Source: Labrys monachus (GTDB lineage: Bacteria > Pseudomonadota > Alphaproteobacteria > Rhizobiales > Labraceae). Taken from it: DNA of 64,000 bases. Shown piece after piece: positions 50,472 to 54,473 of the stretch. Below the pieces are notes generated by a model, which was not told the origin of the DNA, ran no database searches, and saw nothing but the letters and a program-made list of their open reading frames with translations. Made by a program: the position numbers and the translations under genes. Location: assembly GCF_030814655.1 (NCBI RefSeq), contig NZ_JAUSVK010000001.1, positions 5,339,001 through 5,403,000 of the forward strand, given 5' to 3'. The first letter of the stretch is position 1. Every line of letters begins with the position of its first letter.

Positions 50472-51002
50472 TCAGGGAACCGTGTGATCGGGCGGGTTCC
50501 GGAGCTGTTTCGGCGTCAGGAACATAGCGAGCGTACCGAGATGAGGGCCGACATCCTTCCATTGCGGGACGTCGAGATCGATCACCGCGAGCGCTGCGGT
50601 CGGGAATTTGTCCTCGAGCGGGCTCGCGGCCGTTCCGCCTCCGCGGACCAGATGGCTGGCCGTCCGCTCGAGCCCGGGATTATGCCCGATGATCATGAGG
50701 CTGGCGACTTCGGGACCGATGGCACGGATCACCCGCAGGATCGCATCGATCGGCGCCTCGTAGACGGCGCGCTCGTAATGCGCGGTATGCTGGCCGAGAA
50801 AAGGCTCGACCAGATTGAAGGTTTCGCGGGTGCGCCGCGCGGTGGAGATGACGACATGGTCCGGCGAGAGTCCCCGCCGCGCCATTTCCTTACCTATCAC
50901 GGGCGCATCACGCTGGCCGCGCGCCGCCAGCGGCCGTTCATGGTCCGTAACGCCGTCCGGATAGGCCGATTTGGCATGGCGCAGCAGGATAAGTCGGCGC
51001 AT
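50472..51002 (-). CDS. Histidine phosphatase family protein (SixA type)
   Basis: A 176-residue protein with the N-terminal phosphatase signature LILLRHAKS (His9), ERPLAARGQRDAP, VISTARRTRETF and the second histidine in LMIIGHNPGLE. This is the short SixA layout, whose E. coli member dephosphorylates a phosphohistidine on signalling or transfer proteins. The substrate here is unknown. Its ATG overlaps the stop of the upstream M15 peptidase by one base (TAATG), so it belongs to the caspase-M15 operon. Confidence 0.92.
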   Translation of the reverse strand: MRRLILLRHAKSAYPDGVTDHERPLAARGQRDAPVIGKEMARRGLSPDHVVISTARRTRETFNLVEPFLGQHTAHYERAVYEAPIDAILRVIRAIGPEVASLMIIGHNPGLERTASHLVRGGGTAASPLEDKFPTAALAVIDLDVPQWKDVGPHLGTLAMFLTPKQLRNPPDHTVP

Positions 51003-51793
51003 TATCGTCCTTCTTCGGGTGTCCTGGCCAAGGAAATGATTTCCGGCCGATATTCAAAATGCATGGTATCATAATGATACCATTTTCCGCCCCAGATGAA
51101 CCCGTGTTTTTCGAACACCGAAACGATCTCGGCGGGAATACGGTTCCTGTAGGTGGCGTCGTCGGTCTCCCGCGTCGCTCCGCTCCAGCGCCAATAGTCG
51201 GCGAACCTGACATTGATGTCGATCGCCGCCGCATAGGCATGCATGCTCCGGCGCCGGGTGCCGGCCACGGGCCGGCAATTATAGGTGCCGGCCGAGGGTA
51301 TGAGGTAGGCGCGAAACCTGGCCGGCAAAGCCTCGAGATCACGGGATACCGCCTCCAAATGTGCGGCGACGCCGTTGGTGGGCGTGACCCGCAGCGTACC
51401 GCCGCCGAGCCCGGGAAGCCACCGGACCGTCTCGAGCCGGACCTCGCCCCTTGAGCAATCGCCATACATCGCGTCGAACAGCGCCTGGTTGCGGGCACGG
51501 CCGGGGTCGTCGGCCTGGTCCGACGGCGCTCTCTCGACGGCCCCGAGCGGATAGGGCACGGCGAACATGTCACGAATGTCGGCATCGGCCACCCGCTGCT
51601 CCGGCGTCTTGCCGGCGATGCCGTCGGAGAGGGGGAGATGCCGGCCGTTCTTCAGGATGAGATCCCTCGCGTCATAGCCGGCGATGAAGTCGGGGTAGGC
51701 CGCCACCAAGGCATCGAGCGCCGCGTCGGCACGCGCCCCTGTCGGAGCCGCCGCCAATGCCGCAACCGCGAGGAAGGCGCATGCGCCCCTCAC
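51002..51793 (-). CDS. M15 family peptidase (D-Ala-D-Ala carboxypeptidase/endopeptidase-like)
   Basis: A 263-residue exported peptidase starting with the GTG at 51793, which overlaps the caspase-gene stop as GTGA. The signal peptide is GACAFLAVAALAAAPTGARA. The zinc site is clear: SMHAYAAAIDIN gives the His and Asp ligands, and KWYHYDTMHFEYRPEI gives the catalytic and third-ligand region, as in the VanY/L-alanyl-D-glutamate peptidase superfamily (M15_4-like). It should cleave peptidoglycan stem peptides in the periplasm. The start is chosen by overlap; an in-frame upstream extension would run through the caspase gene. Confidence 0.88.
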   Translation of the reverse strand: MRGACAFLAVAALAAAPTGARADAALDALVAAYPDFIAGYDARDLILKNGRHLPLSDGIAGKTPEQRVADADIRDMFAVPYPLGAVERAPSDQADDPGRARNQALFDAMYGDCSRGEVRLETVRWLPGLGGGTLRVTPTNGVAAHLEAVSRDLEALPARFRAYLIPSAGTYNCRPVAGTRRRSMHAYAAAIDINVRFADYWRWSGATRETDDATYRNRIPAEIVSVFEKHGFIWGGKWYHYDTMHFEYRPEIISLARTPEEGR

Positions 51794-52929
51794 GGTGCGG
51801 ACTCGGCCCGCTGAATCAGGGCGAGGTTGGCTTTCTCCACCGGGTTGAGAGTCACGTTCCATGTGAAGGGCCGGTACCAGTAGAACTGCGAGAAATAGGC
51901 CCGCAGCTGCGCATCCTTCATGAAGCGCCCACGCCGCGCGAAGATCTCGTTGCGCGCGACCCTCAGCTGCACGGGCGAAAGGGCAGCGACCTCGTCCCAG
52001 CCGAGTTGCCGGTCTCCGGACTCGGGCAGGATGAAGCCGGGCTGGACGTTGCGGGGCGCCTCTGCGGGCACGTCGGGAAGCGGCACGGCTGAAGCTTCCT
52101 TCCGCGTCGGCTGGACGGCGGCGGCATTGTCCTGGGCGGGCTGGAGGACCTTCACCGGCTGCGGATCGGCGACGCTGCCGGCTATGGCGAAGGAGCCGAT
52201 GATCGCCTCGTTGACCCAGGGCGTCTGCGCGCCCTGCGTCGCCTGGTCGACATCCGCCCGGACCTGGCCGAACATCTGGCGGATGTCGAGCCCGGGCGTG
52301 CCCATATGCGCCAGCAGCGCCTGCGTGAACGGCGAGTTGCGCCCCGTGCCGTCCTGCGCCACCGAGCCGGGCGCCGTCGAGAAGGCGATCAGCGTGCCCT
52401 TGGCCTCGGACGCGTCGAGATCGACCCGCGCCAGCCCCCGCGTCCCCGCCCCGCGCACCAGAGCATGCGCCAGCGGATTGTCCCGGCACGAATCCAGGAT
52501 CACGATCTTCACCTTCGCCGACGCCCCGTCCACCAGGTCCAGCAGCTTGTCCAGCGACAGCGCCTGGGTGTCGAGGTCGAGTTCGTCCGCGATCTTCGCC
52601 GACACCGGGATCAGGTAGTTGCGCCCCTTCACCTGCACGCCATGGCCCGAATAGAACACCACCACGCTGTCCGCATGGTCGGCATCGCGCAGGAACGCGC
52701 GTACCCCGTCATTCATCGCCTGCAGGTCGCCGTCCCTGACCAGCGTCACCCGGTAGCCCAGCCGCCCCAGGCTCGCCGCCATGTCCGACGCATCGTTCGC
52801 CGGATTGGACAGAGGCGTCACCGACCGGTACGCCCCGTTCCCGATCACCAGCGCCGCCTTCGGCGCGGCATGGGCCCAGGACGCAGCCATTGCGACCACC
52901 ACGAAAATGCTCCAGAAGACGCTTCGCAT
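51790..52929 (-). CDS. Secreted caspase family protein with C-terminal YARHG domain
   Basis: A 379-residue protein with a signal peptide (MRSVFWSIFVVVAMAASWAHA). The caspase-like C14 domain covers about residues 23-255: ALVIGNGAYRSVTPLSNPAN, the catalytic histidine in VVFYSGHGVQ (His96) and the catalytic cysteine in IVILDSCRDNP (Cys148). A Pro-rich linker leads to a YARHG-type domain (QLRVARNEIFARRGRFMKDA, AYFSQFYWYRPFTW). The dyad is intact, so it is probably an active periplasmic or secreted cysteine peptidase. It is the first gene of an operon with the M15 peptidase and SixA-like phosphatase, and is divergent from a ClpP-fold protein. Confidence 0.92.
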   Translation of the reverse strand: MRSVFWSIFVVVAMAASWAHAAPKAALVIGNGAYRSVTPLSNPANDASDMAASLGRLGYRVTLVRDGDLQAMNDGVRAFLRDADHADSVVVFYSGHGVQVKGRNYLIPVSAKIADELDLDTQALSLDKLLDLVDGASAKVKIVILDSCRDNPLAHALVRGAGTRGLARVDLDASEAKGTLIAFSTAPGSVAQDGTGRNSPFTQALLAHMGTPGLDIRQMFGQVRADVDQATQGAQTPWVNEAIIGSFAIAGSVADPQPVKVLQPAQDNAAAVQPTRKEASAVPLPDVPAEAPRNVQPGFILPESGDRQLGWDEVAALSPVQLRVARNEIFARRGRFMKDAQLRAYFSQFYWYRPFTWNVTLNPVEKANLALIQRAESAP

Positions 52930-53153
52930 CGCCGACAGCCCGCTGTGAAATCCCCTTCAGGATACATCGTTTGCCCCGGCACGGATGCGTGAAAATGCAC
53001 GCGCATCGCCGCGGCCTGTGGCATGTTTGCCACGCTTGCCGATTGTCTGGCCGGGAGAATCGCCGCGGGCCATTTCATGCTTGCAACGACGTAACACTTC
53101 GGCCCAGAAATGCCGGCTCCTCGTACCGGTGCGTATGCAACCCCGGCGAAGCG

Positions 53154-54473
53154 ATGTGGCAGAAGGACAAAGGTTTGAAGGCTGGTCCGAAGCGCGGTCC
53201 ACGGTTCGCAGCATCCCTCGCGGGAGTCGTTCTGGCGCTGGCGGCGGTCCTGCCCGCGCAATGCGCTCCCAGCCGGACGCCGCCGGCGAAGCCGAGACCT
53301 GACGACGACACATTGCCGATGCATTTCAGCATCGCCGCCTCGGGCAAGGACTGTCCGGGATGCGTGATCGTCAATGCATCCGGCGAGATCGTCGACGACA
53401 CGTCCCGCGACTTCGCGGATTTCGTCTCCCAGAATCGTCTCGACGGCGTGCTTCCGCCCGAGCCGGCCGCCTCAGGCGCGCCCAAAGTGATCATCGCCTT
53501 CGAATCGGTCGGCGGCAAGGTCCAGTCCGCCCTGATCATCGGCCGGCGTATCCGCAAGGCCGGATGGATCACCGTCGTCGGGCAGGCCTATGTGACCCGC
53601 GAGGGCACGTTCCTCACCGATGCCGGCTGCTATTCGGCCTGCACGATGGTGATGCTCGGCGGCGTCGATCGTCTGGCCGTCCCCGGCTCGAAAATCGGCG
53701 TCCATCAGTTTTCGCCGCAATTCGGCGACGGCGAGACATTCGACGCGCAGGAGATGAGCCAGATCGTGCGCGATTACGGCCGCGAGGTGGTGAGCGTCTA
53801 CGACTTCGTCCGCACCATGGGCGTGGACCAGGATTTCTTCCTGGCGACCTTGCGCACCCCCTTCAACAGCCTCGACGTGCTGCCGGAGTCCCAGTGGGTC
53901 TCGACGGGAATCGCGACCGCCGTGCTGCCGCGGACCAGCGGCGACGTGCCGGTCGGCGCCGTTCTCGATGCCGCCGCCCATGCCGGCAGCCCCGCCCTGA
54001 CCGTCACCGCCACACCGGCCGTCGCGCGGCCTCCCCTGGCTCCCGACCGGGTGTCCACCGGCGCGTGGACGGTCAGCCGGGCCGAAGGCAAAGCCGCCTC
54101 GGCGCAATTCACCAGCGATGACCTGCGCCTCTCGCTGGCCTGCACGGATAAGACGACGGCCCGGCTGGACCTCTCCTTCAAGGACCTCGCACCGCTGGAC
54201 CTCGAGCGCCTGCGCGCCGCCGCCTTCTCCGCGAAGACGCTGAAATTCGCGGATCGGCGCCTGTCCATCGACGATATCGGCGCGCCGGCGCATGGTGAGC
54301 AGAGCCTCGCGGCCCAGGTCGACATCAGGGATGTGGAAGCGATACCGGCGAGCGACGCCTTCACGCTCGCCGTGCTCAACAAGGCGGGAGAGCCGGTCGG
54401 GCGCGCCACCACCGTCCCGACCGCCGGCATCGGCAAGGCGATCCTCGACGCGATGTCGGCCTGCGGCGCATAG
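53154..54473 (+). CDS. Exported ClpP-fold protein (COG3904-like)
   Basis: A 439-residue protein with a signal peptide (PRFAASLAGVVLALAAVLPA) after a basic start. Residues about 110-220 show a ClpP/crotonase-type fold: VIIAFESVGGKVQSALIIGR, then GCYSACTMVMLGGVDRLAVP with a candidate nucleophile Ser161, and IGVHQFSP with His184, as in the COG3904 predicted periplasmic proteins. The C-terminal half (Asp/Leu/Ala-rich, from about residue 300) is separate and unrecognised. ATG at 53154 is preferred because the longer frame covers the divergent promoter. It is divergent from the caspase operon over 224 bases. Confidence 0.85.
   Translation: MWQKDKGLKAGPKRGPRFAASLAGVVLALAAVLPAQCAPSRTPPAKPRPDDDTLPMHFSIAASGKDCPGCVIVNASGEIVDDTSRDFADFVSQNRLDGVLPPEPAASGAPKVIIAFESVGGKVQSALIIGRRIRKAGWITVVGQAYVTREGTFLTDAGCYSACTMVMLGGVDRLAVPGSKIGVHQFSPQFGDGETFDAQEMSQIVRDYGREVVSVYDFVRTMGVDQDFFLATLRTPFNSLDVLPESQWVSTGIATAVLPRTSGDVPVGAVLDAAAHAGSPALTVTATPAVARPPLAPDRVSTGAWTVSRAEGKAASAQFTSDDLRLSLACTDKTTARLDLSFKDLAPLDLERLRAAAFSAKTLKFADRRLSIDDIGAPAHGEQSLAAQVDIRDVEAIPASDAFTLAVLNKAGEPVGRATTVPTAGIGKAILDAMSACGA

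What the first reader, a model, noticed from the sequence alone, without database searches (positions are those of the whole stretch)
50472..54473. Secreted caspase, M15 peptidase and SixA-like phosphatase in one overlapped operon, divergent from a secreted ClpP-fold protein
The caspase gene (intact His96/Cys148 dyad, signal peptide, C-terminal YARHG-type domain) overlaps the M15 peptidase by GTGA, which overlaps the SixA-like gene by TAATG. A second exported, probably hydrolytic protein (COG3904-like, candidate Ser161/His184) is divergent over 224 bases. Three exported hydrolase folds and a phosphohistidine-type phosphatase in 4 kb suggest a single envelope process, for example regulated wall cleavage or processing of a surface protein. 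The families are known; the combined system is, as far as I know, undescribed. Functional linkage is inferred from gene order only.
Basis: partly seen in the sequence, partly recalled or inferred. Interest (0 to 1): 0.6.

Follow-up and report, generated by a model that had tools for sequence, protein, structure and literature searches.

The report
Wall peptidase paired with YARHG-tailed caspase
In one order of bacteria, a predicted cell-wall-cutting enzyme often has a small wall-directed protein (YARHG) as its gene neighbour, and in several lineages that neighbour also carries a caspase or, in two genomes, a TIR domain, parts best known from cell death and immunity.

Summary
The window is from a Labrys genome (Hyphomicrobiales). 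What recurs is the M15 peptidase with the caspase's C-terminal YARHG domain. In 80 named M15 loci a caspase is adjacent in 27, and all 27 carry YARHG. In an even sample of 397 genomes of the order, 75 have this M15 and 24 of the 75 have YARHG within 1.5 kb (about 0.06 expected). In those 24, YARHG is carried by a caspase (10), a membrane-spanning TIR protein (1) or neither (13); a second TIR case came from a further search. Against: 51 of 75 lack an adjacent YARHG, and YARHG-tailed caspases also occur away from M15 (9 of 10 in one family). Best reading, partly inferred: an envelope module in which YARHG works at the wall where the M15 enzyme cuts peptidoglycan, with an exchangeable attached effector domain. 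Biochemistry is untested.

The parts
51790..52929 (-). Exported caspase (Peptidase_C14) with C-terminal YARHG domain; His96/Cys148 dyad; low-confidence linker about residues 267-296
51802..52038 (-). YARHG domain of the caspase (Pfam match residues 298-376, coordinates converted from residue numbers)
   Evidence: Pfam; in-house profile; helical C-terminal domain in the model
51002..51793 (-). M15/LAS-type metallopeptidase with signal-peptide-like N-terminus; His185, Asp192, His245 invariant in 51 aligned proteins; GTGA overlap with the caspase stop
50472..51002 (-). SixA-like histidine phosphatase (RHA and GHNP motifs); found beside M15 only in Labrys
53154..54473 (+). Exported ClpP-like protein, Ser161/His184 conserved; divergent neighbour in Labrys only, not part of the recurring unit
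52104..52875 (-). Tract of the caspase gene 98.3% identical over 772 bases to an LprI-tailed caspase elsewhere in the same genome (pattern of gene conversion)

Best explanation
The caspase and M15 genes form a two-gene envelope module whose recurring parts are the YARHG domain and the M15 peptidase. Shown by sequence: YARHG and M15 genes are adjacent far more often than chance; in the loci examined, wherever a caspase is adjacent it carries YARHG; the linked caspases do not form one clade; in two genomes a TIR-TM-YARHG protein sits in the caspase's place. Inferred: the M15 enzyme cuts peptidoglycan stem peptides in the periplasm; YARHG binds the wall or something close to it and brings its attached domain to the site of M15 action, or reads its products; the attached domain is the variable output: an exported caspase that cleaves envelope proteins (Labrys, Bradyrhizobium, Aestuariivirga/Rhizobiaceae groups), a cytoplasmic TIR domain coupled across the inner membrane (two genomes), or nothing. 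In Labrys the SixA-like gene overlaps M15 but is a lineage-specific addition; co-transcription was not tested.
For: Adjacency: YARHG within 1.5 kb of M15 in 24 of 75 M15-bearing genomes out of 397, 23 of them within 170 bases and one at 779; about 0.06 expected from density with an assumed 4.5 Mb genome. In 80 named loci 27 have an adjacent caspase, 26 in the same direction within 120 bases and one divergent at 644; the other 53 have none detectable in the flanks held, which run from 58 bases to 10 kb a side. In 95 M15 loci scanned with an in-house YARHG profile (80 named plus 15 unnamed, overlapping samples) every adjacent caspase (32 of 32) has YARHG, 8 more loci have YARHG without caspase right beside M15, and no YARHG lies elsewhere in the flanks. 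Outer neighbours differ between groups, and order flips in 5 Bradyrhizobium loci. Caspase tree without the Labrys LprI-tailed paralogues: the linked label needs 4 changes, all 4 forced by starred branches; M15 tree: 7 changes for caspase linkage, at least 3 forced. TIR_2 plus YARHG by Pfam in both TIR cases, with a hydrophobic segment from about residue 169-174 between them. M15 model resembles LdcB/VanY/VanXY/Ply500. YARHG was proposed to bind peptidoglycan (PMC3355149, abstract and passages) or a moiety near it and to anchor peptidases (PMC3848476, passages).
Against: No biochemical evidence in any of these organisms. 51 of 75 M15 genomes have no YARHG within 1.5 kb (30 of the 51 have one elsewhere), so M15 does not need the partner in cis. 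YARHG-tailed caspases also occur without M15 beside them: G015, G129, G156 and G050, and in the family of G199 nine of ten (G256, G273, G405, G418, G419, G421, G422, G423, G424, within the 4.5-9.5 kb held; only G425 has M15, divergent). In that family only 5 of 41 YARHG-bearing genomes have YARHG beside M15. G050 has no M15 hit at all. 70 of 322 genomes lacking M15 have YARHG. YARHG ligand binding is a hypothesis in the papers seen. The TIR version rests on two genomes of one genus. The best structural match of M15 is only Z 8.0. The samples contain related genomes, so counts are not independent events.
Confidence: 0.45

Rival explanations
1. Proteolytic switch: the exported caspase cleaves the M15 enzyme (or its inhibitor) and turns wall cleavage on or off; the pair is a protease-hydrolase cascade.
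For: Tight co-directional pairing in 26 of 80 named loci; both look exported; caspase dyad invariant in 22. A protease paired with a proenzyme that it activates exists in another bacterial system (PMC12799240, start of abstract seen in a search listing).
Against: M15 genes also sit beside YARHG without caspase, or beside TIR-YARHG, or alone, so M15 does not need a caspase. Most matched LAS folds start at model residues 82-133 of 263 (two pneumococcal LD-carboxypeptidases at 29-31), leaving no long propeptide after the signal peptide. No cleavage site was tested.
Confidence: 0.2
2. A cell-death or defence module: caspase or TIR are the killing effectors and YARHG-M15 the envelope sensor.
For: Interchange of caspase and TIR beside one recurring pair; the TIR segments weakly match the ThsB model of PADLOC and the three caspases scanned match its caspase model.
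Against: PADLOC hits are at domain level only. The caspase looks exported, so it should not reach cytoplasmic targets of its own cell without lysis. 13 of 24 YARHG-M15 pairs have neither domain.
Confidence: 0.12
3. One reading: caspase, M15, SixA-like and ClpP-like act as one envelope process.
For: Gene overlaps; SixA-like follows M15 in all 5 Labrys genomes and the ClpP-like gene is divergent from the caspase in 3 of 4 resolvable ones.
Against: Neither gene's homologue was detected beside M15 outside Labrys; ClpP-like lies 3.8 kb from the caspase in G004; SixA-like is predicted cytoplasmic.
Confidence: 0.08
4. Linked inheritance without joint function: M15 and YARHG genes stay together as a small block in some lineages and do not act together.
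For: Linkage is clustered on both trees, most M15 genes lack an adjacent YARHG, and most YARHG-tailed caspases of one family are elsewhere.
Against: Order and strand change (upstream, downstream, divergent, convergent), the attached domain changes, and outer neighbours change while the two remain adjacent.
Confidence: 0.13

Closest known systems
Caspase with C-terminal YARHG domains, UniProt A5ECX2 of Bradyrhizobium (PMC3355149)
   Same: Signal peptide, Peptidase_C14 domain, C-terminal YARHG (two copies there; the caspase-first Bradyrhizobium loci found here also have two, the window protein and the M15-first Bradyrhizobium loci one).
   Different: The paper treats it as a single protein; the terms M15, carboxypeptidase and TIR do not occur in its text. 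The M15 neighbour is added here.
LAS/M15 peptidoglycan peptidases (LdcB, VanY, VanXY, Ply500)
   Same: Pfam Peptidase_M15_4, His185/Asp192/His245, best structural matches.
   Different: Extra conserved N-terminal part (about residues 24-80) not covered by most matches; no solved relative found by sequence; specificity unknown.
DUF4424-YARHG proteins such as lpg2210 (PMC3848476)
   Same: YARHG at the C-terminus, proposed to anchor partners at the surface; one DUF4424-YARHG protein seen here in G005.
   Different: Different N-terminal domain; that paper reports no clearly recurrent genomic associations (passage), whereas M15 recurs here.
Surveyed metacaspase operons (PMC3501461)
   Same: Caspase homologues in operons with proteolysis or cell-surface genes, including an amidase domain in a Geobacter operon (passages).
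   Different: M15 and VanY do not occur in the text, nor YARHG.

Membership tests
Caspase/metacaspase-like peptidases (C14) | Peptidase_C14 domain above Pfam cut-off | tested here: met
   150.5 bits, cut-off 21.4
Caspase/metacaspase-like peptidases (C14) | Catalytic His/Cys dyad | tested here: met
   His96, Cys148 invariant in 22 proteins
Caspase/metacaspase-like peptidases (C14) | Proteolytic activity and cleavage specificity | not testable with these tools
   needs purified enzyme
YARHG domain proteins | PF13308 above cut-off, exported | tested here: met
   55.6 bits, cut-off 27; signal-peptide-like N-terminus by eye with hydrophobic segment; no signal-peptide program was run
YARHG domain proteins | Binding to peptidoglycan or a nearby ligand (hypothesis in the literature) | not testable with these tools
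   proposed in PMC3355149 and PMC3848476
M15/LAS metallopeptidases | M15 profile and zinc-site residues | tested here: met
   PF13539 77.3 bits, cut-off 25; His185, Asp192, His245 invariant in 51; the assignment of these three as zinc ligands is recalled
M15/LAS metallopeptidases | LAS fold | tested here: inconclusive
   Top rows are LdcB, VanY, VanXY, Ply500, Z 8.0 to 6.4, then Hedgehog N-domains; Z near or under 8 is not decisive
SixA phosphohistidine phosphatase | NCBIfam TIGR00249 equivalog cut-off | tested here: not met
   40.5 bits against 74.5
ClpP-fold (COG3904-like) proteins | Homology to ClpP | tested here: inconclusive
Known anti-phage defence systems | A complete set of system proteins in PADLOC | tested here: inconclusive
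   Only domain-level caspase and ThsB-like/TIR hits among 8 proteins scanned

The most novel reading that the evidence does not exclude
The YARHG-M15 pair is a peptidoglycan-state sensor of Hyphomicrobiales with exchangeable output domains: an exported caspase that acts on the envelope, or a TIR domain that signals into the cytoplasm through a membrane-spanning YARHG receptor. Caspase and TIR, two hallmark immune and death domains, were grafted more than once onto the same wall-reading unit.
Probability: 0.15. Interest if true: 0.85.

Novelty: new variant of a known kind. Interest (0 to 1): 0.6.

Why it matters
Caspase homologues are numerous in rhizobia and relatives (PMC3501461, passages) and, to my knowledge, mostly without known substrates; this ties one class, YARHG-tailed exported caspases, to a specific partner gene with a predictable substrate (peptidoglycan). 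It also supplies genomic-context evidence, reported as lacking in PMC3848476, for the proposal that YARHG works at or near the wall. The exchange of caspase for TIR beside one enzyme would be a natural experiment in how effector domains are wired to envelope state.

Tried and rejected
Four-gene operon as a conserved system: rejected, because homologues of SixA-like and ClpP-like were detected next to M15 only in Labrys.

Extension of the operon to clpS-clpA: the called clpS start lies 280 bases after the SixA-like stop, and in the related Labrys loci L042-L044 the gene after SixA-like is another family; not pursued.

A T6SS link, suspected from ClpA-like genes of 879 residues near the M15-first Bradyrhizobium loci: the neighbours of L045 read by eye as ABC transporters, a MOSC-like protein and an alpha/beta hydrolase; rejected by eye only.

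'All YARHG-tailed caspases are paired with M15': rejected. What lies beside the unpaired ones was looked at by eye in six or more loci and no wall enzyme was recognised; not scanned with Pfam.

Number of caspase-tree changes: the first tree gave 9 changes for the linked label, but that count is inflated by gene conversion between linked and LprI-tailed caspases in Labrys.

M15 as a zymogen with a long propeptide: not favoured.

Sequence search of PDB with the M15 profile gave nothing at E 0.1. Paper searches: caspase, M15, peptidase, Bradyrhizobium: 0 papers; 'prokaryotic caspase homologs' or YARHG: 31, of which 20 listed; metacaspase, peptidoglycan, carboxypeptidase, operon: 2, neither about this by title and start of abstract; caspase, 'M15 family', gene cluster, bacteria: 0; at least two of YARHG, TIR domain, M15, caspase: 2,614, the 10 listed hold no YARHG; YARHG with peptidoglycan: 3; orthocaspase, cell wall, Alphaproteobacteria: 1 review, listing only; 'bacterial TIR' with YARHG: 0. 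The library is open-licence PMC only, so absence from print is not shown.

Rows and samples: 150 YARHG rows (124 genomes, the tally) and 75 M15 rows were copied by hand as coordinates. In the M15 tree 7 of 96 loci were left out beforehand as duplicates, partial or without M15 (L026-L028, L030, L039-L041). In the caspase trees the truncated L126 and L156 were left out. Unlinked caspases in those trees are the best matches to the window caspase in each relative plus the window genome's paralogues, not a full sample. For 5 of the 13 adjacent YARHG genes without caspase or TIR (G068, G140, G226, G262, G293) the architecture rests on open-frame length alone (114-142 residues).
Full report
What is there. 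The four genes are at the stated places with the stated overlaps. The caspase is a Peptidase_C14 protein with a signal-peptide-like N-terminus and a C-terminal YARHG domain, joined by a stretch of very low model confidence at residues 267-296. The M15 protein has His185, Asp192 and His245 invariant in 51 aligned proteins, a confident model (mean pLDDT 90.5), and structural matches headed by LdcB, VanY, VanXY and Ply500, Z 8.0 to 6.4, then Hedgehog N-domains (Foldseek's own best is Ply500 at E 0.0074, none under 0.001). The SixA-like protein is a branch-1 histidine phosphatase below the sixA cut-off. The ClpP-like protein has no Pfam family; Ser161 and His184 are invariant in eight aligned proteins and its profile finds ClpP weakly (E 0.041). 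The genome is one 6.92 Mb contig of the genus Labrys, judged by the nearest named relatives Labrys sp. KNU-23, Labrys sp. WJW and L. okinawensis.

Is the gene order conserved? Within Labrys, caspase, M15 and SixA-like are together in all five genomes, and the ClpP-like gene is divergent beside the caspase in three of four resolvable genomes; in G004 it is 3.8 kb away, and in G002 a contig ends inside the caspase. Outside Labrys no homologue of the SixA-like or ClpP-like protein was detected beside M15. The caspase was: of the 80 best named loci that encode this M15, 27 have a caspase adjacent, 26 in the same direction within 120 bases (21 with the caspase upstream, 5 Bradyrhizobium loci with it downstream) and one divergent at 644 bases; the other 53 have none detectable in the flanks held, which run from 58 bases to 10 kb a side. 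These 80 were the best matches to an alignment led by the window protein, so 27 of 80 is not a population frequency. Outer neighbours differ between groups: clpS-clpA or other genes in Labrys, a LepA-like gene in caspase-first Bradyrhizobium, MoaE/MoaD-like and Ndk-like genes in Rhizobiaceae, a MOSC-like and a ClpB-like gene in M15-first Bradyrhizobium (names read by eye from the translations).

The shared part is YARHG. Pfam found YARHG in 8 of 8 M15-linked caspases scanned outside the window (seven, one of them the divergent L099, and the convergent one of G169), while the Labrys paralogues carry an LprI-like tail (G000 and G004; G001 and G003) and the caspase of G039, which groups with Bradyrhizobium ones on the tree, a DUF4189 tail. 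With a profile built here from 28 YARHG sequences, all 32 caspase-linked loci among 95 scanned had YARHG in the caspase, 8 of the 63 others had a separate YARHG ORF beside M15, and no YARHG was found elsewhere in the flanks. The 95 comprise the 80 named and 15 unnamed loci and overlap in content (for example L042-L044 and G001-G003).

Even sample of the order. In 397 genomes the M15 profile found 75 genomes, one copy each at E 1e-20, and PF13308 found 124 genomes. YARHG lies within 1.5 kb of M15 in 24 of the 75, 23 of them within 170 bases; about 0.06 would be expected from density with an assumed 4.5 Mb genome. Genome co-occurrence is 54 of 75 with M15 against 70 of 322 without (Fisher p 4e-16, not corrected for phylogeny). 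Of the 24, ten are YARHG-tailed caspases (five Labrys, G040, G115, G246, G169, and G215, where the caspase is split into two ORFs), one is a TIR protein (G199), and 13 have neither (nine from genus code g20, two from g31, G110, and G044, where YARHG is followed by a PG_binding_1 domain in a 1,436-residue frame). In a sample of 289 genomes of the class (the window's and some of its order included) the M15 profile found 4 besides the window's own, none with YARHG within 1.5 kb.

Results against. 51 of 75 M15 genomes have no adjacent YARHG, and 30 of these have one elsewhere. YARHG-tailed caspases stand without M15 beside them in G015, G129, G156 and G050. In the family of G199 (103 genomes, 41 with YARHG, 51 YARHG rows) I looked at all rows: YARHG is beside M15 in only five genomes (G199, G413, G415, G467, G425), and of ten YARHG-tailed caspases only that of G425 is beside M15. 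So the YARHG tail does not by itself mark an M15 neighbour; rather, in the loci examined, a caspase beside M15 has the YARHG tail.

TIR in the caspase's place. In G199 the gene just upstream of M15 (its end overlaps the called M15 start) encodes TIR_2, a hydrophobic segment at about residue 169, a long charged stretch, and YARHG. The scan of its family turned up a second, G413, with the same architecture, a TIR region 38% identical to the first, and M15 about 100 bases downstream. In the same family G415 and G467 have YARHG without TIR or caspase upstream of M15. The topology (TIR inside, YARHG outside) is inferred from one hydrophobic segment and is not tested.

How often was the pair assembled? 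On a quick tree of 63 caspase domains the linked label needs 9 changes, but part of that comes from gene conversion in Labrys. Without the four Labrys LprI-tailed paralogues the tree of 59 needs 4 changes, all 4 forced by starred branches. M15-first Bradyrhizobium, caspase-first Bradyrhizobium and the long-branched L099 lie apart from the remaining linked caspases (Labrys, G040 with L112, Aestuariivirga with Rhizobiaceae). On the M15 tree of 90 rows caspase linkage needs 7 changes, at least 3 forced. Changes may be gains or losses, so more than one assembly is likely but not proved.

Side finding. In three of four Labrys genomes compared (G002 was not), the catalytic domain of the YARHG-tailed caspase is nearly identical to that of an LprI-tailed caspase elsewhere in the same genome: 98.3% over 772 bases in the window genome, 98.0% over 751 in G001, 99.4% over 722 in G003, but 79% in G004; between species the caspase-M15 stretch of the window genome is about 76% identical to G001 and G003 (G001 against G003 89.5%). 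The tract covers the catalytic domain and stops short of the tail. This is the pattern of gene conversion and implies that one catalytic domain is kept alike under two different C-terminal domains.

Mechanism. Shown: adjacency, architecture, conserved catalytic residues, secretion-like N-termini (by eye and hydropathy). Inferred: M15 cuts peptidoglycan (family knowledge); YARHG works at or near the wall (hypothesis of PMC3355149 and PMC3848476); the caspase acts in the periplasm at the place set by YARHG. Which enzyme acts first, and on what, is open. I prefer a module with a common wall-directed part and a variable attached domain over a caspase-to-M15 cascade because 13 of the 24 YARHG-M15 pairs in the even sample have neither caspase nor TIR.

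What is known. Caspase-YARHG is a described architecture (A5ECX2, PMC3355149: abstract, passages and the Peptidases section seen); that paper does not hold the terms M15, carboxypeptidase or TIR. PMC3848476 (passages seen) states that no clearly recurrent genomic association was found. PMC3501461 (passages seen) surveyed metacaspase operons; M15, VanY and YARHG do not occur in its text. Searches showed no paper on the pairing in the held library, which is open-licence only; for only 10 of 2,614 papers were listed.

Verdict. Interest 0.6.

Noticed in passing
window 52104-52875 and G000:C1:1696056-1696916 (L152): The caspase catalytic domain is 98.3% identical at DNA level to that of an LprI-tailed paralogue 3.7 Mb away on the contig; the same pattern in G001 (98.0%) and G003 (99.4%), not in G004 (79%): likely gene conversion between differently tailed caspases.
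   Followed up: partly
L219 3179-4531 and L274 460-1740: TIR-TM-YARHG proteins directly upstream of M15 in two genomes of one genus; a possible transmembrane wall-to-cytoplasm signalling protein.
   Followed up: partly
L229 899-5206: A 1,436-residue open frame with N-terminal YARHG and a PG_binding_1 domain directly after M15 in G044.
   Followed up: no
L218 5112-6456: In G215 the YARHG-tailed caspase beside M15 is split into two overlapping ORFs (frameshift or sequencing error).
   Followed up: no
G000-G004: Labrys genomes carry many caspases: 8 Peptidase_C14 matches in the window genome and 15 to 22 matches to the window caspase in the four other Labrys genomes.
   Followed up: no
L140 1036-2382: A caspase that groups with the caspase-first Bradyrhizobium ones has a DUF4189 tail, in a genome (G039) with no M15 hit.
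   Followed up: no
L278, L279, L281, L293, L298, L300, L303, L227, L228: Nine YARHG-tailed caspases of one family without M15 beside them; their partners, if any, are unknown.
   Followed up: partly
L286-L289: Four genomes of the class outside the order carry this M15 without YARHG within 1.5 kb.
   Followed up: no
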